From Planoprotostelium fungivorum (taxonomy: Eukaryota; Evosea; Variosea; Cavosteliida; Cavosteliaceae), in the NCBI GenBank assembly GCA_003024175.1, contig MDYQ01000254.1:60041-124040 (forward strand): a stretch of DNA of 64,000 nucleotides, in the 5' to 3' direction. The notes below the pieces were generated by a model, which was not told the DNA's origin, ran no database searches, and saw only the letters and a list, made by a program, of their open reading frames with translations. Both the position numbers and the translations under genes were made by a program. Each line of letters opens with the position of its first letter. Within the stretch, counting starts at the first letter, position 1. Of the stretch, positions 7,086 to 59,140 are shown piece after piece.

Positions 7086-10000
7086 ATGTCGGCGACCCTT
7101 CAGCAAGCAGCTGAAGAACGTAGAAACAAGAAGGAGTCTAAGACAGCACTTCTCAAGACTCTCGCTGACGACGTATGTGATCTATTTCACACGTCGTTTC
7201 ATCTTCTCCCTTCTCACGCTCTTAGGTCCAACGATTAGAGGAAGATATCAATGCCAAACAGAGGAGTACAGAACAGGCAGTTCAATCCCTCGTCACTGAG
7301 TTGTATTCTAAATTGAACCAATCTATAGCAGCGGCAAGAGGTGGATCCGTCATTCTGATGCAAGTTGACACCCCATCCAGATCGTTCGGACAATGGCCTG
7401 GCTTCTCTCAGAACTGAATTGGAGGAGCAGAAGAGCACCAGCATGGAGATCGCTGGTTGGATCAAATCCAACTTGGGCCCGACCCTCGGAAAGGTAATCA
7501 CACACTGACGTCATCTTCTAAACATCACATCAGGTGTCCACCCTCATAGACAACAAGATCTCAAACTCCAGAATTGAGCAGTTAGAAGAAGTCAAGAGTA
7601 GAGAGGAAGGGCTGTGGAGATTATTCGGTACGTTTTATTTCATCTTATTCCTCATCTCACGAGACAAGACAGGAAATTTCAAGTCCAACACGAACTCTTT
7701 CAAGAGGAGTTGAAGAAGGAGCGAGAGGCACAATCTCTATCGAAAGACAAGCTCATCGAGAGGTTGAAATTAGAATTTGAGTCGGAGAAGAAGTCATTCG
7801 AGAGAGTGAGAGCAGACGACTTTGCCAAATTCGAGGCACACAATCGTGAAGTCAAGAAGGTGAGTGCAGAGTACGAATCTTCCGTGAATGCTCCGTGAAA
7901 TCTCAGTGAAAATTCTCACGCATAGAACAGGAGATGGATGCAGAGAGAAAAGTCATTGACATTCAGAGGAGAAAAGCGGTGGAAGAGGGTGTACAACAGA
8001 TACAGATGGAGATGTACAAATTATCCGAACAATTGACCGCGAGCAAAGAGGAGCAAGCTCAATGCGAGAGGGAGAGAAAGTGAGTTGATCGTCTACAACC
8101 CGCCACGGGTCCGTGCGTACGTTACGTCCGCTGAAATTTACAGGAAAATGCAGACGGTACTGACACAAATCGAAGAAGAGAGATTACGCCTCCACAAGGA
8201 GAGACAAGAATTGACTGTGGAAAAGAATAGATTGAACGACAGTCTACAACGACTGGACGCTCTCAGGTCACGTGCCGAAGACGAGGCGCACAAGCACAGG
8301 AACGAGGCCCAATCGTTCGCCGAACGGATCGAAAGCTTACTGTCCAAAGAGAGAGCCCTCTTGGCAGAGGAGAAGGTGGAGTGGCTCGCTGTAGATGGAG
8401 CTGACGGGGTAGGTTCACCTAGAGACGGAGAGGAAGAAGTTGTCCTTGAGAATCGAAGAGGAGACTTCTCTCAGACAGAGCAGAACTCGATTAGAAGAGG
8501 CCAGGTGACATCATCTCTCCCGTATTAAATCCCATTTCTTGTCCTCTTGGAGACGTCGAACTACATCGTTGTAGATTGACACGCGATGCAGGTGGTCTTC
8601 GGAGCAAGAGAGAGTTCGCGTGGCGAAGGACAAGTTGAAGATGAAAAAGTTGAATCTGTTAGATGCAGAGGAGAGGTTGCTGCAGAATCAAGAGAATGTC
8701 AGGAGAGATCGAGCCAAGAACGACGAAGAGAAGGCCAGATCCCTCTCGGAGATCCAATCTGAGAGGAATAAGGTGCGTTGTAGATGGAAGATTCCGAGAA
8801 TTGATCGTGGGTCAGGTGGAGGCAGAGAGAAAATCGGTCGACGAAGACATGAGAAGATTGAAGGAAGAATTATCCCAGAAGAGGTGTGATTTCATTCATC
8901 TACAACGAGGCATGATGACGATCTACAACGCTCGATGTGCTGACTAGACGTCGCAGATTGGAATTCGAGAACGGAAAATTGGAGGAAGAGCGCAAGCGCA
9001 TCCGAGTGAGTTGAATCCATCTACAACGAGCCAAAACGTAACTGTAAGTAGGAAGAAGAGTTACGTATGCAGAAGAGAATCGAAGAGGAGAGGGAGCAAC
9101 ACACACTCACTGTGGAGAGGGAGCAGGCTCTAAAATTAGAACAACTGAAGAGAGAAGAAGAGCTGCAGGCTCTTACAAAGAGGAGACAAGAAGAGAGAGA
9201 AGAAGACAAGAGGAGAGAAGAAGAAGAGAGGAAGAGGTGAACATCCTCCTCCATCATGATCTCATGATCATCACACGTCATAACACGTCATAATTCGTCA
9301 CAGGAGAGACAGAGAAGAAGAAGAGAGGAGAAATCTGCAGAAAGAGATGGAGAGACAGAAGGCTGATCTGGAATCTCAGAGAAGAGAGAGACAAGCGAGA
9401 GAAGAAGTAGAAGAGAGAGAATTCAACGAGAAGATCAACAAATTGGTCTCCATGCGTCAGAAATTATCCGACAAACAGAAGGAAGTTGCCACGGCAACGG
9501 TGAATTTCGACGAGATCTCCAGGAATTTTCCGGAGGTCGCACAGTGGCTGTCAACCAACGGGCTGAAGGAGCTGGGTGATAAGATGATCAGCCAAGGTGG
9601 GATGAGAGATGTCTTACGTATCGTGAGGTGTCTCACCTGTGTAGGGTTTGATACGTTGAGAGCTTTGTGTGATCTGTCGGATTCCGATCTACAGTTCATG
9701 AACGTGAAGGATGCAGCGACCCGAAACAGAGTAAGTCACCATCATCACCATCATCATCATCATCACCATCACCATCATCATCACCATCATCATCACCATC
9801 ATCATCACCATCATCACGATGATGAATGACTTGATCGTCTCCGTGAATTTTCAATTTACGTCCAATCAGGTCCTCCAAGCCACACAACAATTGTCCCACC
9901 AACTGACCGAAAAGAGGGAGAGAGAAGAAGCTCAATCGAGACAGAGAGAGCAAGACAGGAGACGACACATCGAGAGGGAATTCCAAGAGCAGCAAGCGAA

Positions 10001-12893
10001 AGAGAGGAAACTCTTAGAGGACATGCAGAGGGAGAGAGAAGAAGCGAGAGCGAGGAGAGAAGAAGAAGACAGGAAACAGAGAGAATTGTCGAAGGAATTC
10101 GACAGAAAATTCGACGAAGGATGGGCGAAGAGCTTGGAGGAGGCGAAAGAGAGGGAGAGGGAGAAGATTCAGAGAGCAGAAGGTGAGTCCACGTCATCAC
10201 TTCATCCTCCCCAGAATAAAATGAAATAAAACATTGACAATCAATAGCGGAAGAGAAGGCCTCCAAATTAAGAGCAGAAGAGAGGAAGAAGCAAGAAGAA
10301 GAGAAGAAGAGAGAAACGGAAGCTGAGAAGAGGAGAGAGACAGAAATAGAGAGGAAGAGGGAAGCTGAAGCGAACAAGAGGAGAGACGAAGAGAATAGGA
10401 AGGCACACAGAGAAGAGACTGAAGAAGAGGCTCCAAGAGAGAGAAAGCTCAGCCGCGGCGGCGAGATCAAGATCATACAACCCAAGGTGGCTCGTTGTAG
10501 ATCGTCAAATTCCGTCGAAATTTCTCACCCCCTGACAGGTCGTGGGCAGGGCTCTCCCCCAGCCGAAACCTCGATCGGACTCAACTTCGTCGACAACTTC
10601 GTCGACAACTTCTTCCCTCCGTTCGTCCATCGACACGACATCCAGTAGCCCCCTGAAAGTCAGCGAAATTTCATCGGAAACTCCCAAAATAGAATCACCG
10701 CGGAGAACCGAACCCACGAGGCCCGAGCCGTTCGTCAGAGCTGAAAAACCGGTGAAAATTGCGGCCGCCGTGACACCCGATGGCGTGGATGAAGATGATA
10801 TAATGGGAAAGGTAGAAGCGAGGAGGAGAGAGAAGCAGGAGGCCATCACACACGATCACGAGATCGATTTCAGGAACGTCTTGAAGGTGAAGAGTCGAGA
10901 TGGAATGGGAGGCTGAGTGTTGGACAGAAGAAGAACGAAGAGAAGGTGGAGAAGAGTGAAGAGATTAAGCCACAGAAGGTAGAGAAGAAGGAAGAAAAGA
11001 AGGAAGAAAAGAAGGAAGAGAAGAAAGAAGAGAAGAAGGTAGAAAAGAAGGCGGAGAAGAAAGCAGAGAAGAAGAAAGAGGAGAAGAGAGAAGAGAAGAT
11101 TGCCGAGGTAGCGGTCGAAAAAGAACCCGCCGTGGAGAAGAAGGAAGACTCCAAGAACAAGGTGGGAGATCTTCCCGCCATCGAGATGGTTTTGAAATTT
11201 GAATAGGTCAAGGCGGTCGCGCTGCTGAACCAAACGGTGAAACCGAAGGCGGGAGGAAAACCAGATTTCACCAAACCAGCTGCCGCCAAAAATTCCGAGA
11301 AAAAGGAGGCCGCTCCCCGTGCAGCAGAACCGGAAAAACCTCCAGTAGAGATCGTAAGATCTTCCGACCCAGTACATCGTACAGCGGGAGTGAGATTTCG
11401 TCGGAATTTCGTCCGTTCTAATCGCTGTACAGGGTGATGATGATGACATCATCAGTAAAGTAGAGGCGAGAAGGAGAGAGAAGCAAGAGGCCATATCACA
11501 GAACCAAGAGACAGCTCACCAGGTGAGAACGAATCATTGTGTTTTATTCAGCGTCTACAACGTGCCAATAGGTCGACTTCAAGAGCATGCTGAAGAAGAG
11601 AGGAGATGAAGAAGAGACGAAGAAGAAAGAGCAAGCGAAGGAACAAGAGAAGAAGGAACAAGAGAGAAAGAAAGAAGTAGAGAAGGCTGAGCAGGATGCA
11701 AAGAAAGCAGAAGAGAAGAGGAGAGAAGAAGAAAAGGTGATTTATTGTTCATCTACAACGACTGACCCGTACAAGGAGGCTGATGCCAAGGCGAAGAGAG
11801 AAGCAGAAGAAAAGGTAAGTGATGTCATCCATCTACAATGACTAAAGAGATAACAGCTGAAGAAGGAGGACAAATCGAAGAAGGAAGCCGAAGCAAAGGC
11901 GAAGAAGGAAGCAGATGAGAAGGTGATGAGTGATGACGTCATCCATCTACAATCAACCAACTATCTGCAGGCCAAGAGAGAAGCAGGAGAGAAGGCAAAG
12001 AAAGAGGCAGAGGACAAGGTGAGTTCTACTCTATTCGTCAATTCAGACACAAACGATCAACAGGCCAAGAAACAAGAAGAGAAGGAGAAGAAGGAAGCTG
12101 CTGAGAAGGAGAAGAAGGAAGCTGCTGAGAAGGAGAAGGAAGCTGCTGAAAGAGACGACAGAGAGAGAAAGGCAGCCGAAGAAAATGTGAAATAGTGTGT
12201 GAATCTCTCTTCTAATTTGAAAAAGGAAAAGAAAGAGGCTGAGCTGAAATCGAAGAAACAATCTGAAGAGAAGGCGAAGAAGGAAGCTGAGGCTAAGGCT
12301 AAGAAAGAAGCAGAGGAGAAGGTGATCGATGACCTCACGATGATGTAATGTGACATCAATAGGCTAAGAAGGAGGCTGAAGAGAAATCGACAAAGGCGAA
12401 GAAGGAAGCTGAAGTAAAGGCGAAGAAAGAAGCTGAAGAAAAGGTGATAACCTGTTTTAACATTTTTTCATGTTTCTCACCGAAATCAGGCCAAGAAGGA
12501 GGCAGAAACCAAAGCGAAGAAGGAGGCAGAAGAGAAGGTGAGACGATGACATCATCGGCCAACGATCAATCGATTCATCAGGCCAAGAGAGATGCAGAAG
12601 AGAAGGCCAAGAAGGAAGCCGAAGAAAAGGCAAAGAAGCCGGTAAGTCACCTCTCGGTTCGTCTCATCTCATTCTAAATGAGACACAGGTCAACGAAGAA
12701 GCTGATCTCATCACATCGGTCAACTCCATGTTGCAAGGTTCCTCTCTCTCAGCGAAGAAGAAGAGGAGCACCAGCACGACGGCCAACAACCTCTTTGGAG
12801 ATCAACCCAAAAAATCCGCCAAGGCATTCTCCCTCTTCGCCGATGATGACGAGGAGGATGTCACAAAGTCCTCACTGTTTTAATAAAGAAAGG
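7086..12893 (+). CDS. giant coiled-coil protein with SAM domain, two DFRxxL-like motifs and Lys/Glu repeat tail
   Basis: Start MSATLQQAAEERRNKKESK at 7086. More than 20 short introns are read; the product is well over 1,000 residues. Layout: (1) Glu/Lys/Arg coiled coil, 7086-9520. (2) A SAM-like domain at about 9525-9900, read as FPEVAQWLSTNGLKELGDKM, then FDTLRALCDLSDSDLQFMNV, then KDAATRNRVLQATQQL, once a 48-base intron (about 9593-9640) is removed. (3) Basic/acidic coiled coil to 10480. (4) A Ser/Pro linker, then two repeats of a module KVEARRREKQEAI followed by IDFRNVLK or VDFKSMLKK (10780-10890 and 11440-11600). (5) An array of AKKEAEEK-type exons, 11587-12640. (6) A basic/acidic tail ending FSLFADDDEEDVTKSSLF. 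The DFRxxL-like motif resembles actin-binding motifs of myosin light chain kinase, so a cytoskeletal scaffold is inferred, not shown. The stop codon overlaps AATAAA. Confidence 0.75.
9733..9869 (+). repeat. intronic CAT/CAC triplet tract
   Basis: An intron starts with GTAAGTCACCATCATC after the exon end TRNR and ends at ATCAG before VLQATQQL. Most of it is an irregular run of CATCAC/CATCAT triplets (about 9738-9820). It can be read as polyhistidine on + or Asp-rich on -, but sits between splice sites inside the SAM-domain gene. Confidence 0.75.
11587..12640 (+). repeat. tandem array of Lys/Glu exon modules
   Basis: At least seven consecutive exons encode variants of AKKEAEEK (for example AKREAGEKAKKEAEDK, AKKEAETKAKKEAEEK, AKRDAEEKAKKEAEEK). 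Each typically ends with GAGAAG or GAAAAG followed by a GT donor, so the introns are phase 0 and about 35-60 bases long. Symmetric exons with near-identical content point to serial exon duplication or slippage. The encoded segment should be a long charged single alpha-helix or coiled coil. Confidence 0.75.
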
Positions 12894-12897
12894 CACA
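12892..12897 (+). terminator. poly(A) signal overlapping the stop codon
   Basis: The TAA stop (12891-12893) of the coiled-coil gene overlaps AATAAA by two bases, implying a very short 3' UTR. Confidence 0.55.
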
Positions 12898-13042
12898 GCT
12901 GCTTCCACATTTGCACCACTACCATTGTCCCTGACTCCTCTACTGATGAGAACCAGTCCGAGGTCCGTTCATGCCCAATCATTTTAACCCTCTCATTATT
13001 ATCCGAAGACCAGAACGGGGTTGAGGGATTTTACTGCCATAT

Positions 13043-13309: not shown

Positions 13310-13326
13310 TCTTTTCCTGTACCAAT

Positions 13327-16300
13327 ATGTACCAACTGGTCGGTCTCCTCTTCTTATCCTTGGCTCTCGCCATCAGCGCCGACGTCTATAACGTTGCAAC
13401 GGTGAATGACATCAGCACCGGTGAGGAAGTATCCCTACGACGATGGAGCTGACCTTTGATAGTCTGGACTACTGCGACAAAGAAGGGAGATGCCAACATC
13501 GTCCTTCAAGTCACTGCCCCCCTGTCTTCTTCCACGTTCAAGGCCATCACTTTGAACGGTAATAAGACTGTCTCGGTCACTCTGACTGCCAGCTCCCTCA
13601 CCTCGGTGACCAACGTGTCTCTCACGTTTGCATCGGTCAGTGGATCTGCAACCGTCTCTAACATCAGTTTTTTTGGAGGATTAACCCCCACCACCGGCAA
13701 CATCTTGGTCTTAAACGTTCCAACTGTTACCATCAACAACTGTGCTTTCACCAATGTATTCGTCAACTGTATGTTTCGCATATCATCCGATGGACTGACG
13801 ATATGATGCAGCCCCGATTACCACCACATCTACCACATTCCTCATCACGAACACCTTGTTCACTGGTCTGAACACTAACTATGGTGTCTATCTCAGCTCT
13901 CAAGGATCGTACGAGGCTCGCAACTGCAACTTCACTCAGAACTCGATGAAATACTCCGCTTTCTACACCGTGAATGGAGGAACCACAATCACCATCACAG
14001 ACTCCATCTTCATCGGAAACTCCGTCACCACATCCATCAACCAGGGTGTAATCAACAGAAAGTCTTACCGTTCCGCCACCATCAGAGGTTGCATCTTCTC
14101 ACAGAACAATGGTAATCATCTCCCGTCGGATCACATGATTTCATCTCACACCACACAGTCGCTCGTCTCCTCAGCGGTACTTTCTCTGCCACCTTTTCCA
14201 TCTCCAACTGCAACTTCACGGAGAACATCGCCCTCTACGACATCATCTCCACCCAGACTGGCTCCCCCTCTCTCGTCACCGTTCAGAACGCAAACTTCAC
14301 CTCCAACACCGCCGGCAACATCTTCTACCTCCCGGACACCAAGAGTCAGCTCGTCTTGACCAATGCCATCCTATCTGACAGCAACGTGGGCAGCACCATC
14401 TACACCAACGCCCTGTCCATCCAACTCAACAACGTCGACAATACCGGAGGCTACAACTCTTTCTTTCTCAATGCCGATCGCAGCTCGGCCACTGCCCCAG
14501 TCGGAGCATTCGTCACCGCTCGCAATTCCATCTTCCGCAACGCAGACAACTCTGTCATCTTAACTCGCAATTTCGACAGCCTCAACGTGACCGGCTGCAC
14601 CTTCACCGGCGCCACATTGGCCACCGGAGAATATCCCGTCATTGCAGTGTCCGCCTTCACCGTGTCCGTCACTTCTTCCCAGTTCGACACCATCACGGGC
14701 CCTTACGCCGTGTTCGTCACCGGCTCTTACGTCCTCGGTGCGATCACCCTCGATGGCAACACCTTCTCGAACGTCCAAGTGTTGAACCAGATCTACGGAT
14801 TGACCGCATCCACATCTCAGCTGTCCGTGTCGAACAACCGATTCACCGACGTGCAGGGGGCCATCCTCTACAGCACCGGGAATCAAACTCTCGTTCACGC
14901 CAACGTCATCGTTAACGTGACGTCCAACGGTAACGTCTTCTCTCTGTCGGGAGCCAGTCTCGCTTTCTACGACAACCAGTTGACTGAGGTCACCACTTCC
15001 GGCTGTGGAGTTTCATTCAGAGGAGACGTGGCTGCGTCTCTGATCAAGGTGGACCACGTTGCTGTTCAGGGTTTCAGTGGGTCGGCCACAGTGTGCGTCG
15101 CCGCCAGCACTTCACTCCTCCAATTCTCCGATTCTTCAGTGGAGGCCTCCACTGGATCGGCTCTGTCCGTCACAGCATCTCAAGTCAACGAGCTGAACGT
15201 GTACAACAACGAATTTTCGGTGAGTTCCACGTGACTTTTCGCACTGACGTAGGCAGGGTATCTCCGCTGTCTCCGGCTCTGCTGTCTCCGTTAGCGCTCA
15301 GACTTCGACCGTCACGGTACGATCTACAATGCGACAACATTTCATTAAGACGTGCAGGTCGCCTTCTTCCGCAACAATGTGATACAGAACGTCGCAGCAC
15401 AGAACGGAGGAGCTCTCTCTCTCGCCGGACCAGTACAAGCTGTGACCATCGGTGACTCCATCTTCTCCTTCAACAGCGCCAGCTCTGGTGGTGCCTTCTA
15501 TATTGCCTCTCAGAATCTGGTGTTGATCTCAAATTCCACCATCACGAACAACAACGCCGCCACCGGTGGAGCTTTCACTCTGTCGGGTGCTAGCCTCAAG
15601 GTATATAACAGCCTGTTGCTCGGCAACTCTGCCGTCAATGGTTCTCTCGTCTACGCCACGGCTGCTTCCTCTGTCGATGGGAATGGAAACGTCATCGACA
15701 CGAAGGACATCACCACCGCGTCTGGTTCTCCCCTGACTCTCAGTGGAGACTTCCAGACTACCATCTCCTGTCCCAACGGTACTATTCTTGACAATCCATG
15801 CCACTCACTTTTCTCGCAGGTAACTTGGTCACTTACTCCAACGGAATCAGCTGCGATGCGTACGGATTCGTACCCCCTACCACCAGCTCCACGACTGCCT
15901 CCAACTCCGCCACCGCTGCGCTTACTTACGGTTGCGGTGGTAACACACTTCCGTCGGGATACACTCGTGGCTCCACCACCACTTTTGTCCTTCCGGCCGG
16001 TTACGCTCCCAACCAACCCATCCGTACCTACACGGTCCACGTACCCTCCGATTATACCTTTACCAACACCCCCATTGTCTTCTCTTTCCACGGTGCTACT
16101 CAGACTTCCGCCGTAGAGGAAGATATTTCGAGCTTGTCTACGTCTGGGCTCAAGATCAACAACAGCCCCTTCATCGCAGTTTACCCTCAGGGAGTTGCAG
16201 GTACCAAGGGTACGACGGCCTGGTTGGGTGATTCGAAATGAGACGAAGGAGGGTGGCTGATGAAGGACAGGTGCTCCGTACTCGAACACGAGCGTAGATG

Positions 16301-18987: not shown

Positions 18988-21037
18988 CTACAGAGTGTAA
19001 TTGGGTTCGTCTCTTCCTTTGACTCTCAGGTCTTTGAACCATTGCACTAACACTTGATCTTCTTCCTCTTCTTCGGCAAAGCTGTACATCATGTCGATCG
19101 CCTGCTGGTTTCAGGGTTTAACTCTTACACTCTCCTCACCTTTCCTTTTAGCTCTAATTGGATGGTGGGAAGGTTTGGTGTCTCAGCATCTTCTGGCTGG
19201 GACAGTTGGTACAGACAGACTAAACATTTTCTGCACAAGTTTAATTCGATGGAGAATATTCCAAAGTGAAGATGAGGATTTCGACGTTAATGATTCGAAT
19301 CTCAAATACCTCAGAAGGCGGGAATCTTGATAATCGTGATCGCTCGATATGTAAGAACGTAAGACGGTCGTGATGACCGATGCAACTGTGCCCTCCACGA
19401 TGACAGCTTCCTGTGAGATTTCGTATCCAGTTTTCAACCGAATTTCTCACCCCATTCTTCATGGTATCCACCCTCAACGACCAACTGTCCAAATTTTCGT
19501 TACGTCGGGTTACGTCGGACAGTGCGTCCACGATTGGATGACACAACAGTGCCGATTCCTTGTGTACCCCCCGAGAAAATAAAACAAATAAAAGGTTCAA
19601 GAGGGTCCGCAGCCCGTGGGTGTCCGTTGTAGATCGACCGTCTTGGCCTGAATCTCTTACCGCGTTGACGTGACGGTAGTTAACGTGAAGTGTATCGTAT
19701 AGGGTGGAGAAGAGGGTGATGCTGAAGACCGTCGTGGCGGGTACGTCCGAGGGTACAAACTGTAGACATAGATAAATCGTCTGTCTACAACGATGTAGAT
19801 GGAAGCTCACCACGGTCGGTGTGTGGAAATAAGAGTAAACGTAATTCACCACCCCCGTCGTCGTTCTGTCCGGAACAATCTTCTCACTCCTGTGCTGATC
19901 AGCCATCGGAAAAACGGAAGAACGGAAAAACTCACTTGATGTCTCCCATGTCTTCTGCAAGGGTGACGTGTATCAGTTCGTACAATTTACGTAAGACCTC
20001 CGGTTGGTCATTCAACAGGATGACATAAGGATTGTCTCGATCTGCAGGTCTGTAGCTCAGCAGAATGTGGAAGATCATCATGATGTCGATGTGACATGCG
20101 TAAATTACGCTTTCTATGGATAGAACGTGAGCTAAGGTGTCGGCGAGTGACATCTGGTTACGTGTCAGTACGCATCGTGGGAGGATGACTACCTCCATGA
20201 TGTAACGAAGGAATGGATTCGTCTCTGAATTTTCTGTACAGGCACACATGACCAACAAGAGACGAATAGAAGGTGGAATGAGAGCTTCTGCTCGATGATC
20301 AACGTCATGCATTGTGATCAAGATGTAGATACCTCCTTCGATGTTCATGATGCATCGGAGGGTGGAGAGGGTGTTGCTGATGACCACATCGGTGAGAGAT
20401 TTGTCCATGAGAAGAGTGGTGACATCGTAATCTGGGAAAGGGAATTTCCGAGACATCACGCCCCGAATGAGAACACTCAACATCTGTTGGCGATGAGATG
20501 TATGCATGAATGATTCATTCCACCTCCATAGCATGAGATGTGGCAGCTGGGTGATGGGGTCCAGAGATTCTCTCTACGCAGCGATCGTATAGGCGATTAA
20601 GGGATGTCTGATGGAACAAATCAGCGGGAATGATCCGAATCATGATACGACCTTCTTCGACAATAAATACGTTTCGTCTTGTTGGGATAAGAATCTTGAA
20701 ATGATCGAATGATCTGGTCTAAGAAGAAAGAAATCCTCCCAATCGGTCGATGTTGCTGTTCATCCGTTTAGTTATAAATCACTGACGGATAATCTACCTT
20801 TGTCTCCGTACTCCAAGAGACATTCTAGATGATATGCAAATTTAGATTTCAATTGAGAACCAGCGCTGTTTCGAAGAATATTTCGACGATCTGTAGGTGT
20901 TACAAAGATGTTCAGCGAATCTAATCACTCGATATTGGCTCATTAATTCCTACAGGATCCAACAGCGAGGGGTCTTTAGACAATGTCTTCCTCCACAAGG
21001 CTCCAAGTGACGTAGTATTTGCAGTTGTTTCACTCAT
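18988..21037 (-). CDS. unrecognised helical protein (ARM-like character)
   Basis: Start ATG at 21037 gives MSETTANTTSLGALWRKTLS. Introns with CAG acceptors join exons in frame through FKILIPTRRNVFIVEE, MLSVLIRGVMSRKFPFPDY, LRCIMNIEGGIYILITMHD, ILLNDQPEVLRKLYELIHV, GVVNYVYSYFHTPTV and CLVCLYQLSQPEDAETPNL. The end is FKDLRVKGRDEPNYTL and TAG at 18988. The repeated amphipathic helices look like an alpha-solenoid. A relation to the SPIN90/Ldb17 leucine-rich family crossed my mind but no diagnostic motif was found. No signal peptide or membrane span. Tail-to-tail with the metallopeptidase gene, about 105 bases apart. Confidence 0.6.
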
Positions 21038-24626: not shown

Positions 24627-25864
24627 ATGAACGAAGAGGTCCAACCTATGTCTACGGACCCCAGCATACAGGCTGAGGTTAGATATATTTGATTCTTCAT
24701 TTAGACGTTTTTTCTGAGAGAAGATTGATCTTGGACATTAGCAGAACAATCAGCTGGTTTGGGGCAACCTCATCAAGGTTCAATACGAATCCGTTCAACT
24801 TAGGGGTCATGTCTATGCGCCTGGAGACACCGTCATCCTCTTTCGCAACGCAGACGAGACACCAGGCGTTCTGATCAAGATCAGCGAACTCTACCAAGAT
24901 GGTAAAGCGGACCGAGTGAGTTGGCGGTTCTAAATGGGAGATTGACTCTCGGTCCAGCCCATGCTCGCCGGCACACGCTTCTACCGGAAGCATGACATTC
25001 CAAACCTCGACGCCGATGCACACAGCATCAAAGATAATGAAGTCTTCGCCTCAGAGCAGACCGAACATTACCCCGTAGCCTCCATCGAGAGACACGTTTC
25101 CATCACCGAGGTGATCTCCATGCGATCCCATCCGAATCACATCTGACTCCTCCAAGGTCGAAGATCACAGCCCTCCCGAGAAATTGGAAGAGTTGAGCCG
25201 CTCTCCAGATTTCTACTACCGATTCTGGTACGACATGCGAGGTATCCCTCAACTATTGGGCCAAGCCCCTCTCGACTTTTACATCCAGCACTTCCACGAT
25301 CGAGAGACGGAGTTCATCTTGGACGAGAGCGTGGACCATGAGTTCATGGGCAAGAAGAGAGGAAGACCTCCTACCACTCCAAAGGAGGGACAGAAGAAGA
25401 GAGGAAGGCCCAGGAAGGACTCGTTACCTCTGCAACAGACTCCCACGAGTATGTCACCTGGTGTCCTCATCAGCCCCGATGGCACACCCATGTCCACAGA
25501 GAAGAAGAAGAGAGGCAGGCCTCGAAAGGTGACCATCTACAACGCGGCTCGCAGACGACTGAAATCTGCCGTCGCAGAACCCCCTGCCTGACCCAAACGT
25601 AATCACCGCGAAGAAGAAGAGAGGAAGGCCCAGAAAGGTGAGAGCCTCTACCTCATCGATGTCTCATGTCTGCGATCGCAGGCCCGCCCCGAAGATAGCG
25701 TCAAGCAGCCTGGAGAGGAGACAGATGAAGGGTCTGAAGGAGAAGAGGGAGAGCAACAAGAGGAGGAGGCCTTTGAGCACCAGGGCCAACCGCAAGTTGT
25801 CGTCGTGCATCATCCCGAGCAGATGCCCCAAGCCGAGTCTAAGCCTGAGACGGCCTCGACATAA
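24627..25864 (+). CDS. BAH-domain protein with AT-hooks
   Basis: Probable nuclear chromatin protein. Start MNEEVQPMSTDPSIQAE at 24627. Exons at about 24750-25110 encode a BAH (bromo-adjacent homology) module: GHVYAPGDTVILFRNADETP, GVLIKISELYQDGKADR, LAGTRFYRKHDIPN, then NEVFASEQTEHYPVASIER. The C-terminal half has at least four AT-hook cores (GKKRGRPPTTP, QKKRGRPRKDS, KKKRGRPRK, and KKRGRPRK near 25620), which bind AT-rich minor grooves. Introns lie at about 25528-25579 and 25637-25681. The final exon is acidic and Gln-rich (DEGSEGEEGEQQEEEAFEH) and ends PETAST. The BAH plus repeated AT-hook layout fits a regulator that reads nucleosomes. No SET, bromo or PHD domain is visible. Confidence 0.8.
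25534..25544 (+). repeat. copy of dispersed CATCTACAACG motif (intron)
   Basis: Lies inside the intron that starts GTGACCATCTACAACG in the BAH/AT-hook gene, seven bases from the donor site. One of many copies discussed in the findings. Confidence 0.6.
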
Positions 25865-27353: not shown

Positions 27354-28644
27354 ATGCCGCCGGGACCAAAGCAGAATGGAGGAAAACCCAACATCGCCTG
27401 TAATGCATGCAGAAAGAGTCACGTATCATGCGAGCGCGGTGATCTGATACCAGATGTTACCGCGAGTTCATCGGATGCAGAGAGACCATGTAGGAGATGT
27501 CAGTCAAGAGGGTTAGTCTGTGAAGAAGTAGAATCGAAGAGGAGAAAGACACAACAGACATCGCCAGATGCCCCAATCAATTATACCTCCGCACATGTTA
27601 TGAGCGCTCCCTCTGTATCACAAAATGTCTACGCTAATCCTGTGTATCAACAACAACATATTGCGAACATACAAGGGGTCTCAACGGTAGAACGTGAGAA
27701 TGGCTCGAAAACCATCCTTGACAGATGACCAGTCGATGAATGGTCTCTTCTACTGGGTTCGAGCCCCTCCTCAGGGATAGAATTAACATACGCACCTCCG
27801 GTGACCAATGCACAACCCCCATCTCTATACGTCAGACCTCTGGAAGAGACCAAACGTCTTCAACAACTCATCCAAAAGAGGTGATTCCATTCCAATCCAA
27901 TCTAGGATGATGGATGTCTCATATCATAATCACAGGATGGGCAGTCGTCTGACACCAGAAGTTCTTCGGCTCATCGGACGGACTTGGGAGACCATCAACT
28001 CTCGCATCCACGGACTCCAACAATTCGTCACTGCCGAACAGAAACAACAGATGGTCAGCGATTACAAGCAGAGACTTCACGTAAGTCACCCTCTCTCACC
28101 ACCATTGACCCTCACATCAGGAACACACGCAAGCTCTAAAGATATCACCTGCACCGTCTCTCATTTGGGAGAGATCACTTCGCATCTTGTACGTAAACCC
28201 TGTCTTTAAGAAGATAGTCGAGTGGAACGACTGGCCGCTGCCCACAGAAGACTTCACCGAGTTCATGCAGGTAAAAATAGAACCGGCGCGTTGTAGATTG
28301 AGCGAGGGCAGATGCTGTCACCGGTGTCGGTCAGAATGATGAAGTACAACGCGAAGATGTTTTTGGACGTACAATGCGACAGCATCACGACGAGGATCGG
28401 CTTTCGAAGGTTGAACACTGACGTGAGTACTCTCTATACCCTGTGGTCGATTCATCATTCTGATGATGTCGATCAGGATGAAGTGTTTACGGAGGGAAAC
28501 GGAGTCTTGAATGTCATCCGAGACCAATTGGGACTACCCGAATTATTTATCTGCCAATTTGTTCCAGATCCACCATCAGATGAACTCCCCATCGCTGAGA
28601 TGGTGAAGAGAGCCATCATTGACGGAGGATGGCATGGACAATAA
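27354..28644 (+). CDS. Zn2Cys6 transcription factor with PAS-like domain, copy 2
   Basis: Start MPPGPKQNGGKPNIACN at 27354. Zn2Cys6 half-sites are IACNACRKSHVSC and PCRRCQSRGLVC. Between them lies a 42-base GT-AG intron at the same position as in copy 1. It has no stop and is a multiple of three, so retention would add 14 residues between the half-sites. Downstream are SLYVRPLEETKRLQQLIQK, LIGRTWETINSRIHGLQQF, a PAS-like LRILYVNPVFKKIVEWNDWP, and VRMMKYNAKMFLDVQCDS. The C-terminal FTEGNGVLNVIRDQLGLPEL leads to IIDGGWHGQ. TAA overlaps AATAAA. Only 114 bases separate it from copy 1, so a local duplication is clear. Confidence 0.8.
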
Positions 28645-47306: not shown

Positions 47307-50300
47307 TTACCAGAAGGGACACCATCCGATGTAACACTGACACAAGTTTTCGTGCGACGTCGCTTGGTTGATGAGCCTCTGCACTTGCTCGGGAATGTCC
47401 AGCGTCTCCGTACCAAAGTCCCTCCCCGTCAGCTTCTTGTTCACTCGACTCATGACCTGCACCTCTCTCAGTCTCTCTCTCCTTCATCATCATGTTGACG
47501 ATCATCACCTGCAGTGCCTTTCGGTTGATGACTTCAGAGTTGCCGAGCTGTGCATCGTACGTGCCGCTCTCTTCTTCGCTGTGTGGCTGCGAGTTGGCCG
47601 TTCGATCGATTCCGTCCGAAGCGTTGAGCCGGCTGCTCGCCCCGCTCGTGGCATCTGCACCATCTCATCAGCCAACGTGAAGAAGATAAGAATCACCTGG
47701 TGAAGTGGTCGTGATCAATCTCCAATTGATGATGGGATCGTGAACAAAGGCCTCTAAGACGGCCATGAGTGATTCCTTGTTGTCTCTCATCACTCGCATG
47801 ACGCTCTCGCACGTGCAGCGGAAGGTACCTTCTATACCGGACACCTCCATGGCCTTGATGAGCATGCGAGTGAGACGGAAGGGAATCTTCTCGGGGTACT
47901 TGTCACGGTGTGAAGCGACCTCGAAGCACTCTCCGAAATCAATGTGGATGACTGCTCCGGTGTGACGATCGAGCATCAAGTTGCTGGGGTGGCGATCGCC
48001 TAATCCCAGTATGTATCCCACCATGCTCATCACACCGAGCGACCTCGTGTAGTTGGTTCTTCTGTCTAACCACATCTGCATTGTCGTTCAACATTCAATC
48101 GATGTGATGAGTGAGATTGATGTGATGAGTGAGGTTGATGTGATGAGTGAGATTGATGTGATGAGTGAGATTGATGTGATGGAGGGGTGTTCACCTCGGA
48201 ATTGGATGACTTGAGCCACAAGATCCTCTCTAAATCGCTTCCGTTCGTGCTCTCCAGAGCGAATTGGAAAGATTCAACCTTTTGCATGAGGGTGAGGTTA
48301 TCGTACTGCAGCTCTGGAGCCTTCTGCATCATCAACCTGCGTGCGTCAGTCACATCGAAAACTCCACGGTTTCTATCATCTTCACCTGTGCTCGATGTTG
48401 GTCCAGATCTTTCTCGACTCTCGATAGTCTCGAATGAGTTGATGCAGCGTGTCACTGTGTGGAACCCAACCAATGAGGCCAGAATTGGGGGACAATGGAA
48501 TGACAGAATACCTCTGGATGTTGAGATGGTTTTTCGATGTTTCGTATTCCGTGGCGAGGAGTGTGTTGACTAAGCCGAACAGCTGCATGACCCTCTCGTC
48601 TTGTCTTAAATCTTCGTGGCCTGCGTGTGGTGAGTTTCGTCAGTGTACAAGTCTCACCTTTGAGTAGGAATTGGTACTCTGCATTGTCCGAGCCGTTTAC
48701 GATGCACTTTCTCGGTCTCTGCTTCGATGGAATGACGACTAAGGTGGGGTGGAACGATTTGATTCGAACGACTGGTCCGTGAGTACGATAAGTGCCTGGG
48801 ATGATGGCTTCTAGATTCTGTGCGTTCAACAACTTTGGTGACACCTGATCGTCTGTCATCTTCCGTACGTCTTTACATTCTACACCGTAGACGTGTTTGT
48901 CTTTGTATTCTAAATGATAGAGCACGAGAGGGTTCTATATGTTCTATATCGTGACACTTTCACGGTGGAGGATGAAAAGACATCGATGATACGTTACCTG
49001 AGATAACTCCAATGTGGTGATCTGGTGGACTTGCTTTGTCAATCTCCTGAACACTTGATAATACAGATCCCACGCCGTGTTCAACTCGTTCGGTCTCCTC
49101 GTTCTCTCGTACCTCTACCCCACCATCAATCTACAACCTGCCACTCCCCCTCACCTTGACCCTCTCGTAAGCATCTTGCAAGTCCCTGCCGTAAGCTTGC
49201 TGGAAGGCGACTTCTCTCATCGTCTCCGGTCCCTTCTCCAGCATCTCGTGGAGCGGCTTCAGCGTGGCCAGCATTCCCTCAGGATTCTTATCTCCAAAGC
49301 AAGTCCTCGAGGCTTCCTCTATTCCCTCGTGCCACATCTCGTGCCACAAGATACTGGCCCGTACCAATTCGTTTGAGACCAATTGGGACTGCTCCACTAA
49401 GCGTGGAGAATGTTTCTTCATCTTCTCGATGACGGCGACGGCACCGGAGACTCGAAGGGAAGAGTGTGATTTCGATGCGACTTGGAGTGGATAGACGAGT
49501 GCCTGCGGGTGAACTTTTCCGATGGACGTCAAGAGATCGTTGATTAATCTCCTGATCTGGACGACGGAGACGTGGATTCGAGCGATGATCTGCGGTATGA
49601 CCTATTCTCATCAGCTCCCATCTCATCATCACATGATGATAAAAGATAAAAGAATGTCATCAGCTCCCATCTCATCATCACATGATGATGGTGAAGACGA
49701 GAGGGTGTCATCAACGCCATCTCATCGTTGCATGATAAAAAAAAGAAAAGTATCACCTGCAACCAGGTATCGACGGAAACGGTTGCGAATCCATCCATGA
49801 GGGCACTCTCCACTTCTCTCAGGTTTCCATACTTGAACCACAGATTGAGTAGACGCAGAAGATCTTGCAGGCTGTGTGCCGGACCCAGGGCGATGGAACG
49901 GAAGAAACCAGTGATGGCTGGGACGAGGTGCTCGCTGATCTTTCTTCTGTACACGGCCCCTCCCTTCTCGTAGTAGCTGATCGATTCATAATTACTGAGG
50001 GCCCAACCGTGCCATGCCTTGTACCAGTTGCTGTCGTATTCGATGGCCCCCTAATGATTCGATCAGTTGATCGATTTGATGTGATGTGATGATGTGATGT
50101 GATGTGATATGATGATATGATGTGATGTGATGTGATGATATGATGTGATGTGATGTACTCACTTGGAACGAGTTGATGATGGATGGGATGGTCGAGCTGT
50201 CCAAGCCTTCGAGCTGTGTGTGCCACTCTCCCAACTTGAGGAAGACTCTCGATTGGATGCTGTTATCATTCCTCACCGGTGCGAATCTGTTCACCATCAG

Positions 50301-53300: not shown

Positions 53301-56163
53301 ACGGATGGTTGGATTCGTCTCGGTTTGGATCTCAGTGAGGAGAGTGTCTAATAGTTTGGGCCAATCGGTGAATGGTTTGATGACGTAGCCGGTGTGTCCG
53401 GCCAGCTGTCCCAACGTACGTATGGCGACCTGTCAGATTCAGTTCTCCGCGAGATTTCCCTCGATATTCTCACCTCTCTCTTCGAAGGAGAAGATTGATC
53501 CTGCAGAGTTTCGATGATGAGAGGCATCAGCTCGACGATGTGTCCCTTTAGATATTCTGCAGTGACGGCTGCCAATTGCCCGACAGTAGACAGAGCGGCG
53601 GAGGACACGGCTGCGTCACCTTCTCTCAATTTAGGAAGGAGAGCTTTCATGAGAGGCTCCACGTAAGGCTTCACGAGGTGGGGTGAAAACTCGATGAGAA
53701 TTCCCAGCATTTTAGAAGATTCTTCCTTCGTACGAGAGTCACCCGAGTGCTCTGATGCCACGTCAGATGGACGCATCTACAACGAGCCTCACCCAATTGC
53801 GTCAATAATCGAATCAAAGTCTTTCTCAGAGAAGGTAAGACGTGGGCGGGATTACAATGAGCCAATCGACACAATATATCCAACGCGATCTGTCTGATCT
53901 CAAACACTTCATCGTTCAACGCGATGAAGAGAGATCTGTACCGCCGTCAACGCATCGTTCTCCCTTCACTCTCACCTCAAGTTGTTGGCTTGAGCCAAGT
54001 GATGGTCGAACGTGGGCAACATAGATTTGAGTACGGTGAGTCGGATGTCTGTGTCTGGATCTGCTATGGCCACCGCGATCAATTTCTCCAAGATTTCACT
54101 GACGACAATGCTGTAGTACCTCCCCTCTACACCCTTCTCCCTGCGCCACGTCATCACATTGTCACGTGACTTGATCGTCTCACGTTGGTGCGGCCATCAG
54201 CTTGCAGCAACACAGGGCGGCTTCTTTTCTGATCTGGGGGGACGTGTCTTTCAGATAGTGAACGATGTTGGTCCTCAGCATCTCCGTTAACAAGTGAGAT
54301 TCAAACTCGAAGGAACCTGAAGAGTCAGCGAAAAGTCGTGGGATTTCGCATACCCAAGATGCGTAGAGCGAGGGCGGTGATGCGGTCTTGATCTTCCTTC
54401 GACGTCGTTGTAGATGAAGCGGGGGTGGGGGGTACGTTGGACTGTACCTTCCTCCTCCATTTGGCGGGAGTTCCAGGGTAATAGAACAATTTTCCCGCCA
54501 AAGTCATGGACAGGAGGTCCAACAGCCTCTCTTGAATTTCCGCCGAAATTTCGGGTATGGACTTTGCGATGTTGGACAGGGCGATCGTGAGGCTCTGAGA
54601 CAGTCCGCAGGCAAATATGGGATCTAACAGATCGTAGACAGAGTCCCTCAGTAATCCACCCACCGCTTCACTCATCATGGAGACACAAGTGACAGCCTCG
54701 GGGGCACAGCTGACACCTTGTCGACGTCACGATTTTTGTCGACACCCTATCATCACCTTTCACTTTGGGCGTGAGACCAACTCTCGCGGATGCCATGATC
54801 TGATCGATGTAGGGTGTGATGTTCTCTCGGCTGATGACTGCCATCTGTCATCCATTCAGTGAACGAATCGATGATAGGTGATTAAGACATTGATGAATTG
54901 AACTGACCTCCCCGATCGATATGAATGCGTGTGGTCTGGCGTCAGAATCTTTCTTCGACAAGCTGATGAGATAATTCATGGAGAACTCGAGATGGTTCTT
55001 GTTATACTCTTCGGGGTTGAACGCCGCCAGCTTCGGTATCACCATGGTGACGGTCTTACGAATCAATTTGTCTCTGCTGTCCCTGTACTTGAACACCGTG
55101 ATCACCATGTCGTTGTATCTCTCCTTTAGAAACTCCGATCCACTGTGTTTGAACAGAGCACCGACCACCATCAGTGATGCGTGGATGGACTCTGGCGTAG
55201 AAAATTTGTTGAAACCCTTGTTGACCTGCACGCGTTCATTTCACCTTCTACCTCCTTCCCGTCACCTCTTCGTAGATCTTCTGGTACCACTGCAGACGAA
55301 AACGATTTTCACGCTCGGAAATGAGTTGTAGAGCGGCTTCCAGTGCTTCTACTGCACACTCGCGTATGGATGGTTTGGGGTCACGCAGGGCAATCCAGAC
55401 GAGGTCGACGAAGGAAGAGACGTAGCCGTAGAATAGAGTCGGTGACTTTAGGGCGAGCTCTCTGCGTGAGATGAATGGATGGGATGATGGATGATGGAGA
55501 TCACCTGAGGATGAGACACGCTGCATGTCTCTTGCCCTCATGTCTTTCGGAGACCTGTGATGGTGTCAGTCGTGATGGGGAAGATGCAAGATGGACGGAC
55601 CTGCAGCCACTCGAGAGCCCTCTGCATGTCGAATGCAACACATTCTGCCGTGATGGTGGAGCCGATGCAGGACATCTGACCGATGGCCTTCGCCGCCCAA
55701 CTCATGACTTGTTCATCATTGCTCTTCAGACCGATGCGGTAGTAGTTGGCTAAGACACTCGTATAATCATCATAAGCCACCTGAGAGGTTCAGAACGGGT
55801 GAAACGGAGGGGTCTACCTCGATGAGTCTCTCGACTGACATCAGAGCTCCGACCCGCTCAGAGTTGTTGGGAGAATGGATCAGATTCCAAATGTGTGTCT
55901 TTAACAGTGCTTTCAACCATCGGTTATATGCTTCTGTAGAGAGTTCTCTCGATTTACTCAATACCTGGCTCACGTGAGCAGATATCATCGAGATATATAT
56001 GACTCACATAACTCCGCAGAGAATTTGCAGCAGCGTATTTAACATCTTCGTCAACCCTTTCAGAGATGAGTTTGTTGGAATGTCAGTTGTGATATCAATT
56101 GACTCACTTGGTTCTCAAATCATTGAGAATGCTTGCCAACGTTGAATCAGCAAGTGTCTCCAT
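47307..56163 (-). CDS. TOR: serine/threonine kinase TOR (PIKK family)
   Basis: Master regulator of growth in response to nutrients. Start [19 protein letters not shown] at 56163. HEAT repeats fill about 52000-56163 (for example [51 protein letters not shown]). The FAT region is at about 49500-52000 ([33 protein letters not shown]-type repeats). The FRB domain at about 49160-49400 reads [20 protein letters not shown] and [15 protein letters not shown]; the Ser of the EEASR motif, needed for rapamycin-FKBP12 binding, is present. The kinase core shows [16 protein letters not shown] (catalytic loop, about 47970-48030) and [13 protein letters not shown] (about 47930). The FATC end is [19 protein letters not shown] then [11 protein letters not shown] and TAA at 47307. 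It has some twenty introns, several with GATGTGATG repeats. All signature domains are present, so a functional kinase is expected. Confidence 0.97.
48101..48182. repeat. 18-base tandem repeat in a TOR intron
   Basis: About 4.5 copies of GATGTGATGAGTGAGATT with one variant (GGTT). It lies between kinase-domain exons of TOR. Confidence 0.8.
50060..50160. repeat. GATGTGATG microsatellite in a TOR intron
   Basis: Irregular tandem GATGT/GATAT units in an intron of the FAT-region part of TOR. Shorter GATGTGAT-rich tracts recur in other TOR introns (52140-52215, 52560-52620). Confidence 0.75.
53774..53784 (+). repeat. copy of dispersed CATCTACAACG motif (TOR intron)
   Basis: On the plus strand inside a minus-strand TOR intron, so the motif is not tied to the transcribed orientation. 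Confidence 0.6.
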
Positions 56164-57639: not shown

Positions 57640-57724
57640 TGAAATATAATCTACGGTTCAAACTGTTTATTGTGACTCCATTCTTAATGGAGGAGATGAG
57701 TCCCATCGTCTCATGAAGAGCAAC

Positions 57725-59140
57725 TCATCCCATCATCAACATCGACATCACGATCAGCACGATCGTGACATCGTATACGCCACTTGCGGACCCCTGCGCA
57801 GTCGTTCCGGCGTGATAAGATGTAATCGTGCTCTCCGTTACGTCCCCCAATGGATGCTCCCTCCTGTACTCCTCCACATCTTCTTGCGAGAGAGTGTACA
57901 TCAGCGTACCGTATCCCAATTGATCATAGTTGCCGCCTCCTCCTCCCAAATCAAGTCCTCCTCCCTCTGGCTGTCCCAATTGAGCAAACTGGGTCGTCCA
58001 GCGGCAGGGGAGACCTTTGTAGACGGCGTAATGTTGGTAGAGGAGGGTCCAGATGGGTCTTGGATTGGGTCCTCTGGAGTCTTGTGATATGATTGACTGG
58101 TTGTAGTCGACGGAAAGGTAAGGGGTGTAGGGGACGTCGTAACCCAGATTGTATTTGGAGAAGTACTCTGCACCCTTCAGGATGAGGTTATCGTTGGCGG
58201 AGAACAGATCGCGTCCTGATGATGCAAGATCAGAGATGGTGTAAGATTGTATGATGGAAGAAGGAGGAAGGATGATGGGCCGGCTCACTTGATTGAAGGC
58301 CATCTGTGCAATCGATTGTAACAAGGCAAGATCTAGCTGACTGTGACCTTGGTCCCTCCACTCTTGCAGTTGACGCACCATCATCTACATTGTAGACCTT
58401 CCAAAGGGTGTTGTGTCAAGTTCCCATACCTTCTCCGTTGTAAGCATAATCGAACATGGTTTGATTGTCCTGAACAGTGTGAGACCATGTAGATGGGAAG
58501 GTGAGGAGAAGGTACCGTGAGAACCCCAATGGTCATCATAGAGGCTGTGTTACATAGGTCCCAATTCGCCCAGTAACGATATACATCTTGCCCGTTGTGG
58601 TGATCCAGAAAGGCCTATCATCTCAGTCGGTTTCTCTTTAGGATGTTACCTTATTCATAGGGTAGAAGACCTCCAACAGCATCTTTTGGAATTGTTGCAG
58701 ACCAGTCCAGCCATTGTAACTCCTCAATAGCTCTGCAGATTGTGCAAAGGCATAACCGTATATTCCTGATTCGAGATACTTGTCACTGGTTCCGTTGATC
58801 AGCTGCAGTGAAGAGGACCAAGTGTCCAAAATGCGACCGGCAGCTTTTGCATGTGAGACATTGCCCGTGACGGTCCAAGATAGGGGATATAGAGGAGCAG
58901 GTAGTTCTGTTGACCAACGGTGCCGCAATTGATGAAAGATGTGTTTCGGGGGACGTAATTCGAATTCCTCATGTGTTGAGACAAGAGAACCCAGCTGCCA
59001 TTCCATGGTGCTTTGTTGGCAAGGACGTGTCGTCTGACTCTGGCTAGATCAGAAGAAGTATGCAGTAGACCTGGGTGGACGAAGGTTGCACTTGTACTGG
59101 ATAGAGAACAACAGAAGATGAGACAGAGCACGGCAAGCAT
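57725..59140 (-). CDS. secreted, GPI-anchored alginate-lyase-like protein
   Basis: Predicted surface polysaccharide lyase of the alginate lyase (PF05426-like) alpha-barrel type. Signal peptide MLAVLCLIFCCSLSSTSATF; upstream in-frame Met codons exist. FVHPGLLHTSSDLARVRRHV then NKAPWNGSWVLL is the typical start of the domain. Downstream are NVSHAKAAGRILDTWSSSL, GYAFAQSAELLRSYNGWTGL, DHHNGQDVYRYWANWDLCN and EWRDQGHSQLDLALLQSIAQ. These carry the conserved NWD/H and QLDLAL helices. A Gly-rich loop follows (EGGGLDLGGGGGNYDQLGYG). The tail GVYDVTIVLIVMSMLMMG suggests GPI anchoring. Fungi and amoebae have similar proteins; substrate unknown. It is convergent with the NmrA-like gene, 86 bases apart. 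Confidence 0.75.

What the first reader, a model, noticed from the sequence alone, without database searches (positions are those of the whole stretch)
8091..58397. Dispersed short motif (A/G)TCTACAAC(G) concentrated in introns, in both orientations
The string ATCTACAACG, near variants or the reverse CGTTGTAGAT recur about 25 times: near 8091, 8567, 8897, 8920, 9018, 10493, 11551, 11751, 11831, 11944, 15321, 18896, 19625, 19783, 25534, 28289, 28803, 32091, 37123, 37240, 49128, 53774, 54406 and 58382. A given 10-mer is expected about 0.1 times on both strands of 64 kb. Nearly all sit in introns or intergenic DNA, on either strand relative to the gene. Several are fused head-to-head (37240-37254; 19783-19800; 8561-8576; 58382). 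Orientation independence argues against a plain branch-point signal. A mobile-element footprint, intronic enhancer or protein-binding site are options.
Basis: partly seen in the sequence, partly recalled or inferred. Interest (0 to 1): 0.72.

Follow-up and report, generated by a model that had tools for sequence, protein, structure and literature searches.

The report
Intron-only DNA motif inside long genes
In this amoeba-like genome a ten-letter DNA word recurs about eight thousand times and, in the part examined, sits mostly inside tiny introns deep within genes and in either direction, which looks like landing sites for an unknown DNA-binding protein.

Summary
ATCTACAACG (M1) occurs 16 times in the window and 7,984 times in the 36.9 Mb genome, against 62 for the reversed control. 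The palindrome TCTACAACGTTGTAGA occurs 681 times, control 0. A self-trained gene finder on 264 kb (906 introns, median 44 nt) puts 87 of 107 exact sites in introns (17% of bases), 18 in coding, 2 in intergenic DNA. Sites are single or head-to-head pairs at one spacing, in both orientations, rare within 700 bp of the start codon (11/342 introns), commoner beyond (87/564). Paralogous introns at one position carry the site in different orientations and places, or lack it; flanks are no more alike than shuffled ones, which disfavours introner copying. A second intron motif, TGACGTCA, comes in pairs spaced by whole helical turns in 46 of 50 listed cases. Best reading: double-stranded DNA binding sites repeatedly gained in gene-body introns. 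The binding protein and its effect are unproven. My literature searches listed no description (listings partly capped).

The parts
588..597 (-). M1 site (exact ATCTACAACG), predicted intron 564-603
8091..8100 (+). M1 variant (2 mismatches), intron 8080-8143
8561..8576 (-). M1 head-to-head pair (CTACATCGTTGTAG at 8561), intron 8505-8591
8776..8785 (-).
8898..8907 (+). M1 site exact, intron 8884-8956
8921..8930 (+). second M1 in the same intron, 23 bp downstream in the same orientation (within the 21-24 bp peak)
9019..9028 (+). M1 site exact, intron 9006-9051
10493..10502 (-). M1 site exact, intron 10487-10549
11553..11562 (+). M1 site (G at first base), intron 11523-11571
11751..11760 (+). M1 site exact, intron 11737-11772
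11831..11840 (+). M1 variant (1 mismatch), intron 11815-11856
15322..15331 (+). M1 variant (1 mismatch), intron 15317-15357
19625..19634 (-). M1 site exact, predicted intron 19571-19660
19783..19800 (+). M1 head-to-head pair GTCTACAACGATGTAGAT, intron 19760-19810
25535..25544 (+). M1 site exact, intron 25529-25577
28289..28298 (-). M1 site exact, intron 28271-28311
28803..28812 (-). M1 site exact, predicted intron 28794-28861
32092..32101 (+). M1 site exact, antisense in an intron of the Argonaute-like gene (intron low end 32077 or 32086, depending on the model)
37124..37133 (+). M1 variant (1 mismatch), intron 37091-37136
37239..37254 (-). M1 head-to-head pair, perfect CTACAACGTTGTAG core, intron 37216-37262
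49129..49138 (+). M1 variant (1 mismatch), intron 49115-49154 of a gene that looks like TOR (named by eye)
53775..53784 (+). M1 site exact, intron 53752-53792 of the same gene
54406..54415 (-). exact 10-mer in predicted coding sequence (Ser-Thr-Thr codons); taken as coincidence, not a functional site
7506..7513 (.). second intron motif M2 TGACGTCA, intron starting 7494
11934..11941 (.). M2 TGACGTCA in intron 11923-11970, next to an M1 variant at 11945
37027..37034 (.). M2 TGACGTCA in the intron starting 37005

Best explanation
ATCTACAACG (M1) is the binding site of a sequence-specific protein that recognises double-stranded DNA, alone or as a head-to-head dimer on the palindrome ATCTACAACGTTGTAGAT. 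Selection repeatedly creates such sites inside pre-existing, very short introns in the interior of transcription units, because introns are the non-coding DNA available there. SHOWN (on gene models predicted ab initio): over-representation, concentration in introns, both orientations, two discrete site classes, rarity in the first 700 bp and near the gene end, variation among introns at homologous positions, no similarity beyond the motif above shuffled flanks. INFERRED: that a protein binds, that it binds DNA rather than RNA, that selection is the cause, and that its job is in the gene body. My preferred but weakly supported effect is marking long transcription units or suppressing spurious initiation inside them, which would explain why sites near promoters are avoided. 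The companion motif TGACGTCA, with its whole-turn spacing, would serve a second, bZIP-like protein in the same compartment.
For: Genome count 7,984 vs 62; palindrome 681 vs 0. 87 of 107 exact sites in introns, 18 coding, 2 intergenic; with the intron model stripped of k-mer memory 71 are in introns (12.9% of bases), 32 coding, 4 intergenic. Within-intron dinucleotide shuffles: of 790 introns, 62 hold GTTGTAGA against 0.2 expected and 36 hold TCTACAAC against 0.4. Of 120 intronic TCTACAACG sites, 75 have 0-3 of 7 second half-site matches, 1 has 4 and 44 have 5-7: two classes, not a decay series; CTACA and TGTAG half-sites within 20 bp in introns face each other at one spacing in 34 of 36 cases. 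Sense and antisense both occur (23 and 47 single sites). Single-site introns show no RNA folding signal (z -0.13, SE 0.15, n=44). Distance from start codon: 11/342 at 700 bp or less vs 87/564 beyond, Fisher p 1e-9; logistic coefficients for both gene ends exclude zero. Kinase paralogs: at a position shared by 18, six carry M1 (7-mer CTACAAC on either strand), as palindrome, sense site or antisense site overlapping the 3' splice site. TGACGTCA pairs: 46 of the 50 listed (319 genome-wide) lie 10, 11, 20, 21 or 31 bp apart, where 6 of the 31 allowed spacings count as whole turns (p 2e-28). The genome encodes bZIP domains (8 matches).
Against: No binding, expression or chromatin data; no relative genome, so conservation at orthologous introns was not tested. 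Single sites are biased 2:1 to antisense (47 vs 23, p 0.006; for CTACAACG sites not abutting TGAC/TGAT still 35 vs 20, p 0.06), which a purely DNA-level site does not predict. Introns found in only one paralog carry M1 more often (11/36 vs 19/136, p 0.027), so some link with intron gain is not excluded. At the position shared by 18 paralogs, two of the 3'-end sites have the same surrounding letters and may be inherited rather than regained. M1 same-orientation pairs peak at 21-24 bp (50 of 100 listed, of 359), not sharply at 21, and the list includes tandem arrays and coding repeats. The helical phasing is for M2, not M1, and some M2 arrays look like expansion of a 10-bp unit, which would give 10-bp spacing without any protein. 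Gene models are ab initio, 865 of 906 introns are GT-AG, and a branch-point-like [CT]T[GA]A[CT] is found in only 37-38%.
Confidence: 0.6

Rival explanations
1. RNA-level intronic splicing element: M1 in the pre-mRNA is read by a splicing factor (or two factors, one per orientation) that helps define these very short introns.
For: Concentrated in introns; antisense bias 47:23; antisense copies often abut a branch-point-like TGAC/TGAT (21 of 56 single antisense CTACAACG sites against 3 of 23 sense) and 10 introns end exactly in GTTGTAG.
Against: Both RNA strands are enriched although they are different RNA words; distance from the 5' splice site ranges from 3 to 62 nt; first introns, which must be spliced too, seldom have it (2 of 111); donor and acceptor letters of M1 introns look like those of other introns.
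Confidence: 0.17
2. Introner or other mobile-element footprint: introns (or the motif) were copied into genes as mobile units.
For: Unshared introns carry M1 more often (11/36 vs 19/136; 22/126 vs 6/80 in a second set); two introns of different genes share about 30 bp around M1.
Against: Of 346,528 intron pairs, 86 match at E 1e-5 or better (24 of them M1-M1), 12 end to end, 3 of those M1-M1, one within a single repetitive gene; flanks outside M1 are no more alike than shuffled flanks; the 30-bp extended pattern has 3 genome copies at up to 3 mismatches; M1 introns are about as long as others; sites differ in orientation and place among introns at one position; 2 of 107 intergenic.
Confidence: 0.08
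3. Self-complementary hairpin that folds short introns.
For: Paired M1 introns fold better than shuffles (z -1.38, n=26) and so do TGACGTCA introns (z -1.05, n=38).
Against: Single sites are the majority (75 of 120) and show no folding signal (z -0.13, n=44); introns without these motifs show none (z -0.05, n=534) (introns of 34-60 nt only).
Confidence: 0.04
4. Selfish or recombination-driven spread: the site is copied by biased gene conversion, or is a meiotic hotspot motif like the CRE-type M26 site of fission yeast (recalled), without benefit to the gene.
For: Thousands of copies, variation among homologous introns, CRE-like companion motif.
Against: Would be expected in intergenic DNA too (2 of 107); rarity near both gene ends is not predicted.
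Confidence: 0.07
5. Ordinary base composition or chance.
For: None found.
Against: Reversed-pattern control 62 vs 7,984; intron shuffles 0.2 vs 62.
Confidence: 0.005

Closest known systems
Periodic An/Tn Clusters (PATCs) of C. elegans (PMC7725773, abstract and outline seen)
   [quoted passage not shown] that PATCs are abundant in introns of germline genes is recalled.
   Different: PATCs are AT periodicities; M1 is a 10-bp word with a palindromic form in 44-nt introns; no silencing data here.
Intron-mediated enhancement (PMC12055998, abstract and outline seen)
   Same: Introns influence gene output.
   [quoted passage not shown] M1 is rare in the first 700 bp.
Introners (PMC9860276, abstract, outline and three sections read)
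   Same: Sequence shared among many introns in either orientation, genic bias.
   Different: Introners were defined by similarity reaching near both intron ends; M1 introns in general share only the motif, and differ in it at homologous positions.
CRE / bZIP sites (TGACGTCA; recalled)
   Same: The second intron motif M2 is this palindrome, and bZIP domains exist in the genome.
   Different: Known CREs act mainly in promoters and enhancers (recalled); here 60 of 72 lie in introns. M1 itself matches no site I know (recall, no database of sites was searched).

Membership tests
Introner-derived introns | similarity between introns extends to near both exon-intron boundaries, in families of four or more (criterion from PMC9860276) | tested here: not met
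   833 introns all against all with my approximation of the criterion: 12 end-to-end pairs, 3 of them M1-M1; no flank similarity above shuffles
Introner-derived introns | whole introns present or absent between strains, with target-site duplications | not testable with these tools
   no relative genome held
Spliceosomal branch point or splice signal | fixed strand and position relative to splice sites | tested here: not met
   both strands, start 3 to 62 nt from the 5' splice site
Double-stranded DNA protein-binding site | occurs in both orientations; discrete monomer and dimer forms with fixed spacing | tested here: met
   (occurrence only, not activity)
Double-stranded DNA protein-binding site | helical phasing of neighbouring sites | tested here: inconclusive
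   seen for TGACGTCA (46 of 50 listed pairs); M1 same-strand pairs peak at 21-24 bp with array and coding contamination
Double-stranded DNA protein-binding site | a protein binds it | not testable with these tools
   needs extract or expressed protein
Intron-mediated enhancement signal | concentrated in promoter-proximal introns | tested here: not met
   11/342 at 700 bp or less from the start codon vs 87/564 beyond
RNA hairpin element | folding energy below shuffles at all copies | tested here: not met
   single-site introns z -0.13, SE 0.15
CpG methylation beacon | CpG depletion as a trace of methylation | tested here: not met
   CpG observed/expected 0.93 in introns, although cytosine-methyltransferase domains are present (5 exon matches on two contigs)

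The most novel reading that the evidence does not exclude
An intron-confined cis code: this protist writes a small vocabulary of palindromic double-stranded DNA sites (M1, TGACGTCA, perhaps GAAATTTC and TCACGTGA) into its 44-nt introns to label the interior of long genes, so that dimeric DNA-binding proteins can distinguish gene bodies from promoters and ends, and introns are kept partly as the only place where such labels can be written.
Probability: 0.3. Interest if true: 0.88.

Novelty: new variant of a known kind. Interest (0 to 1): 0.7.

Why it matters
Why eukaryotes keep many very short introns is a long-standing question. Here about one predicted intron in nine (98 of 906) carries a specific word that occurs on either strand, is rare near gene starts and differs among introns at homologous positions. 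That makes a function of introns as DNA, not only as spliced RNA, directly testable by binding assays and intron editing in a unicellular organism.

Tried and rejected
Fungal origin: suggested by a CAP59 hit; set aside by eye because of the overall gene set. Branch-point, hairpin, introner and composition readings: tested and rejected or disfavoured. CpG methylation: no CpG depletion. Rfam on the window: no match at gathering threshold. Gene-level clustering: dispersion not significant (p 0.14); adjacent M1 introns 20 vs 15.2 expected (p 0.065). M1 and M2 are independent of each other across introns (odds ratio 1.0). AGACCCAC and AGGCAAAG, also over-represented, lie mostly in predicted coding sequence (38 of 41 and 29 of 32), AGACCCAC almost all in one frame, so I took them for protein repeats. 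Duplicate-segment comparison: two pairs are 99% or more identical and uninformative; in one pair at 90%, two of the three CTACAACG sites seen are unchanged, too few to test and not placed in introns. 18S-based identification of the organism: not completed.
Full report
OBSERVATION. The window holds 16 exact ATCTACAACG (7 plus, 9 minus) and 29 TCTACAAC; CGTTGTAG is its most over-represented 8-mer, 25 against 1.2. In the whole assembly (36,859,091 bases, 471 contigs) the 10-mer occurs 4,011 + 3,973 times and the reversed control 35 + 27 times; CTACAACG occurs 14,371 times, control 2,122. In 264 kb (200 kb of contig C1 plus the window) ATCTACAACG is the most enriched 10-mer, 107 against 1.5.

WHERE IT SITS. 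No annotation or expression data exist here, so I wrote an HMM gene finder and trained it on the 264 kb. It converged on 115 genes and 906 introns, median 44 nt, 865 of them GT-AG, most donors GTGAG-like; a branch-point-like [CT]T[GA]A[CT] was found in only 37-38%. A check: the Argonaute-like gene, with its 14 predicted introns removed, aligns with human Argonaute-2 from residue 228 to 884, E 5e-50. With this model 87 of 107 exact sites are in introns, 18 coding, 2 intergenic, while introns, coding and intergenic make up 17, 58 and 24% of bases (binomial p 1e-47). Because an intron model could learn the motif, I decoded again with a memory-less intron composition: 71 intronic (12.9% of bases), 32 coding, 4 intergenic. 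In dinucleotide shuffles of 790 introns, 0.2 hold GTTGTAGA against 62 seen, and 0.4 hold TCTACAAC against 36.

ANATOMY. For 120 intronic TCTACAACG sites, the next seven bases match TTGTAGA in 0-3 positions at 75 sites, 4 at 1 site and 5-7 at 44 sites (perfect palindromes are counted once per strand). Hence there are two classes: single sites, and head-to-head pairs. Half-sites CTACA and TGTAG within 20 bp in introns face each other at one spacing in 34 of 36 cases. TCTACAACGTTGTAGA occurs 681 times genome-wide, control 0. Single sites occur sense 23 and antisense 47 times; among CTACAACG sites part of this bias comes from antisense sites that abut a branch-point-like TGAC/TGAT (21 of 56 antisense, 3 of 23 sense), but 35 vs 20 remains without them (p 0.06). 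Position within the intron is loose. Compared with other introns more than 700 bp into genes, M1 introns have similar length (45 vs 43 nt), phase, splice-site letters and exon sizes; the last exon base is G in 79% vs 64%. In introns of 34-60 nt, single-site introns do not fold better than shuffles (z -0.13, n=44), paired ones do (z -1.38, n=26), those with TGACGTCA do (z -1.05, n=38), introns without these motifs do not (z -0.05, n=534).

COMPANIONS. Introns are also enriched for other 8-bp palindromes: TGACGTCA 50 vs 3.1, GAAATTTC 21 vs 0.6, TCACGTGA 20 vs 2.7, CAACGTTG (the M1 centre) 18 vs 0.4; in total 250 vs 142 in introns and 283 vs 240 in intergenic DNA. TGACGTCA (M2) occurs 4,581 times, control 561, and 60 of 72 local copies are intronic. 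Of 319 close TGACGTCA pairs in the genome (control 0) the 50 listed are spaced 10 (24), 11 (5), 20 (2), 21 (13), 31 (2), other (4): mostly whole turns of the DNA helix, as expected for proteins binding one face of double-stranded DNA (p 2e-28 against equal use of the 31 allowed spacings). A caution: some arrays look like repeats of a 10-bp unit. Same-strand M1 pairs (359, control 10) are 21-24 bp apart in 50 of the 100 listed, but that list contains tandem arrays and coding repeats.

PLACE IN THE GENE. M1 is found in 11 of 342 introns at 700 bp or less from the start codon and in 87 of 564 beyond (p 1e-9); in first introns in 2 of 111. It is also rarer near the gene end; both distances matter in a joint logistic fit (0.72, 95% 0.48-1.03; 0.39, 0.18-0.64). 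TGACGTCA (11/342 vs 41/564) and GAAATTTC (2/342 vs 26/564) follow the same trend.

EVOLUTION. No relative genome is held, so I used paralogs. Among the 14 best-scoring paralog pairs of the 264 kb, introns at shared positions often differ in motif content. I then fetched 33 kinase-domain loci; 30 gave a usable protein and, with two C1 genes, made 32 sequences and 172 introns after filtering (M1 here is the 7-mer CTACAAC on either strand). At 18 positions shared by three or more paralogs, M1 is present in some members at 9 and in all members at none. At the position shared by 18 paralogs, 6 introns carry M1: two as pairs, one as a sense site near the 5' end, three overlapping the 3' splice site. 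The simplest reading is repeated gain in an ancestral intron, although two of the 3'-end copies have the same surrounding letters and may be inherited. Against a simple picture, introns seen in one paralog only carry M1 more often, 11/36 vs 19/136 (p 0.027), and 22/126 vs 6/80 in the other set (p 0.06); these counts are not phylogenetically independent.

MOBILE-ELEMENT TEST. Using my approximation of the published introner criterion (similarity reaching both intron ends; PMC9860276), 12 of 346,528 intron pairs match end to end, 3 of them M1-M1, one within a single repetitive gene; 86 pairs match at all, 24 of them M1-M1. Flanks outside M1 are no more alike than shuffled flanks: 2 of 1,850 comparable pairs reach 60% identity, 1.0 expected. 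The one striking extended match, about 30 bp, has three copies in the genome, one of them with three mismatches. Introner copying is therefore unlikely as the general source of M1, though individual introns may have been copied.

INTERPRETATION. Both strands, monomer and dimer forms, lack of RNA folding at single sites, whole-turn spacing of the companion motif and varied placement in homologous introns fit binding of double-stranded DNA by dimerising proteins, under selection acting in gene interiors. Why interiors only is inferred: sites that suppress initiation, or that mark elongating regions, would be harmful near promoters and could only be written in introns elsewhere. The genome has bZIP domains that could read TGACGTCA (8 matches); nothing found identifies the M1 reader.

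ORGANISM. Not named by any search. Genes that look by eye like TOR, telomerase and LRR receptors (only Argonaute was tested), 37 Mb and short dense introns suggest an amoebozoan; Protostelium aurantium (deposited as Planoprotostelium fungivorum; PMC10639083 passages; taxonomy) is a guess from recall.

LITERATURE. Searches listed no paper whose title or abstract start describes this motif; several lists were capped (20 of 48, 8 of 8, 20 of 36, 25 of 37, 1 of 1, 12 of 13, 12 of 77 shown). One search was a search on introners (20 of 29 shown). Papers opened: PMC10639083 (passages), PMC9860276 (term search, abstract, outline, three sections; it has no mention of Protostelium or Amoebozoa in the main text), PMC7725773 and PMC12055998 (abstracts and outlines).

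CAVEATS. Introns are ab initio; no RNA data. Some contig segments are near-identical copies (L066/L067, L068/L069, 99% or more), so genome counts include duplicated sequence. Intron confinement was measured on 264 kb, under 1% of the genome, not on all 7,984 copies. Spacing tallies rest on the first listed matches.

Noticed in passing
genome-wide; window 7506, 11934, 37027: A second intron-concentrated palindrome, TGACGTCA, whose close pairs are mostly 10-11 or 20-21 bp apart.
   Followed up: yes
264 kb sample (C1:140001-340000 and window): GAAATTTC and TCACGTGA are also enriched in introns over shuffles, with GAAATTTC again rare near gene starts.
   Followed up: partly
264 kb sample; L040: GGCGGGAA / TTCCCGCC, which resembles an E2F site (recalled), is over-represented (43 vs 4.8); the gene finder of 43 coding, but several lie in predicted introns, three in one intron of L040, so the model may miscall others.
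   Followed up: partly
introns of the 264 kb sample: ATCACATC is enriched in introns mainly in the sense orientation (58 sense, 8 antisense), unlike M1.
   Followed up: no
L062, L063, L065 (C8:38995-39104, C40:42766-42842, C49:132864-132961): Short tandem arrays (units of about 17 to 23 bp) in which the units carry M1.
   Followed up: partly
window 61058-62693: Two reverse-transcriptase ORFs lie side by side on opposite strands (Pfam RVT_1), probably retrotransposon remains; described only.
   Followed up: no
window 30527-34136 and 47307-55841; C1:143520-147874: Argonaute-like, TOR-like and telomerase-like (both by eye) genes, each intron-rich with M1 in some introns.
   Followed up: partly
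L066/L067, L068/L069: Contig segments 99% or more identical: uncollapsed haplotypes or recent duplications in the assembly.
   Followed up: partly
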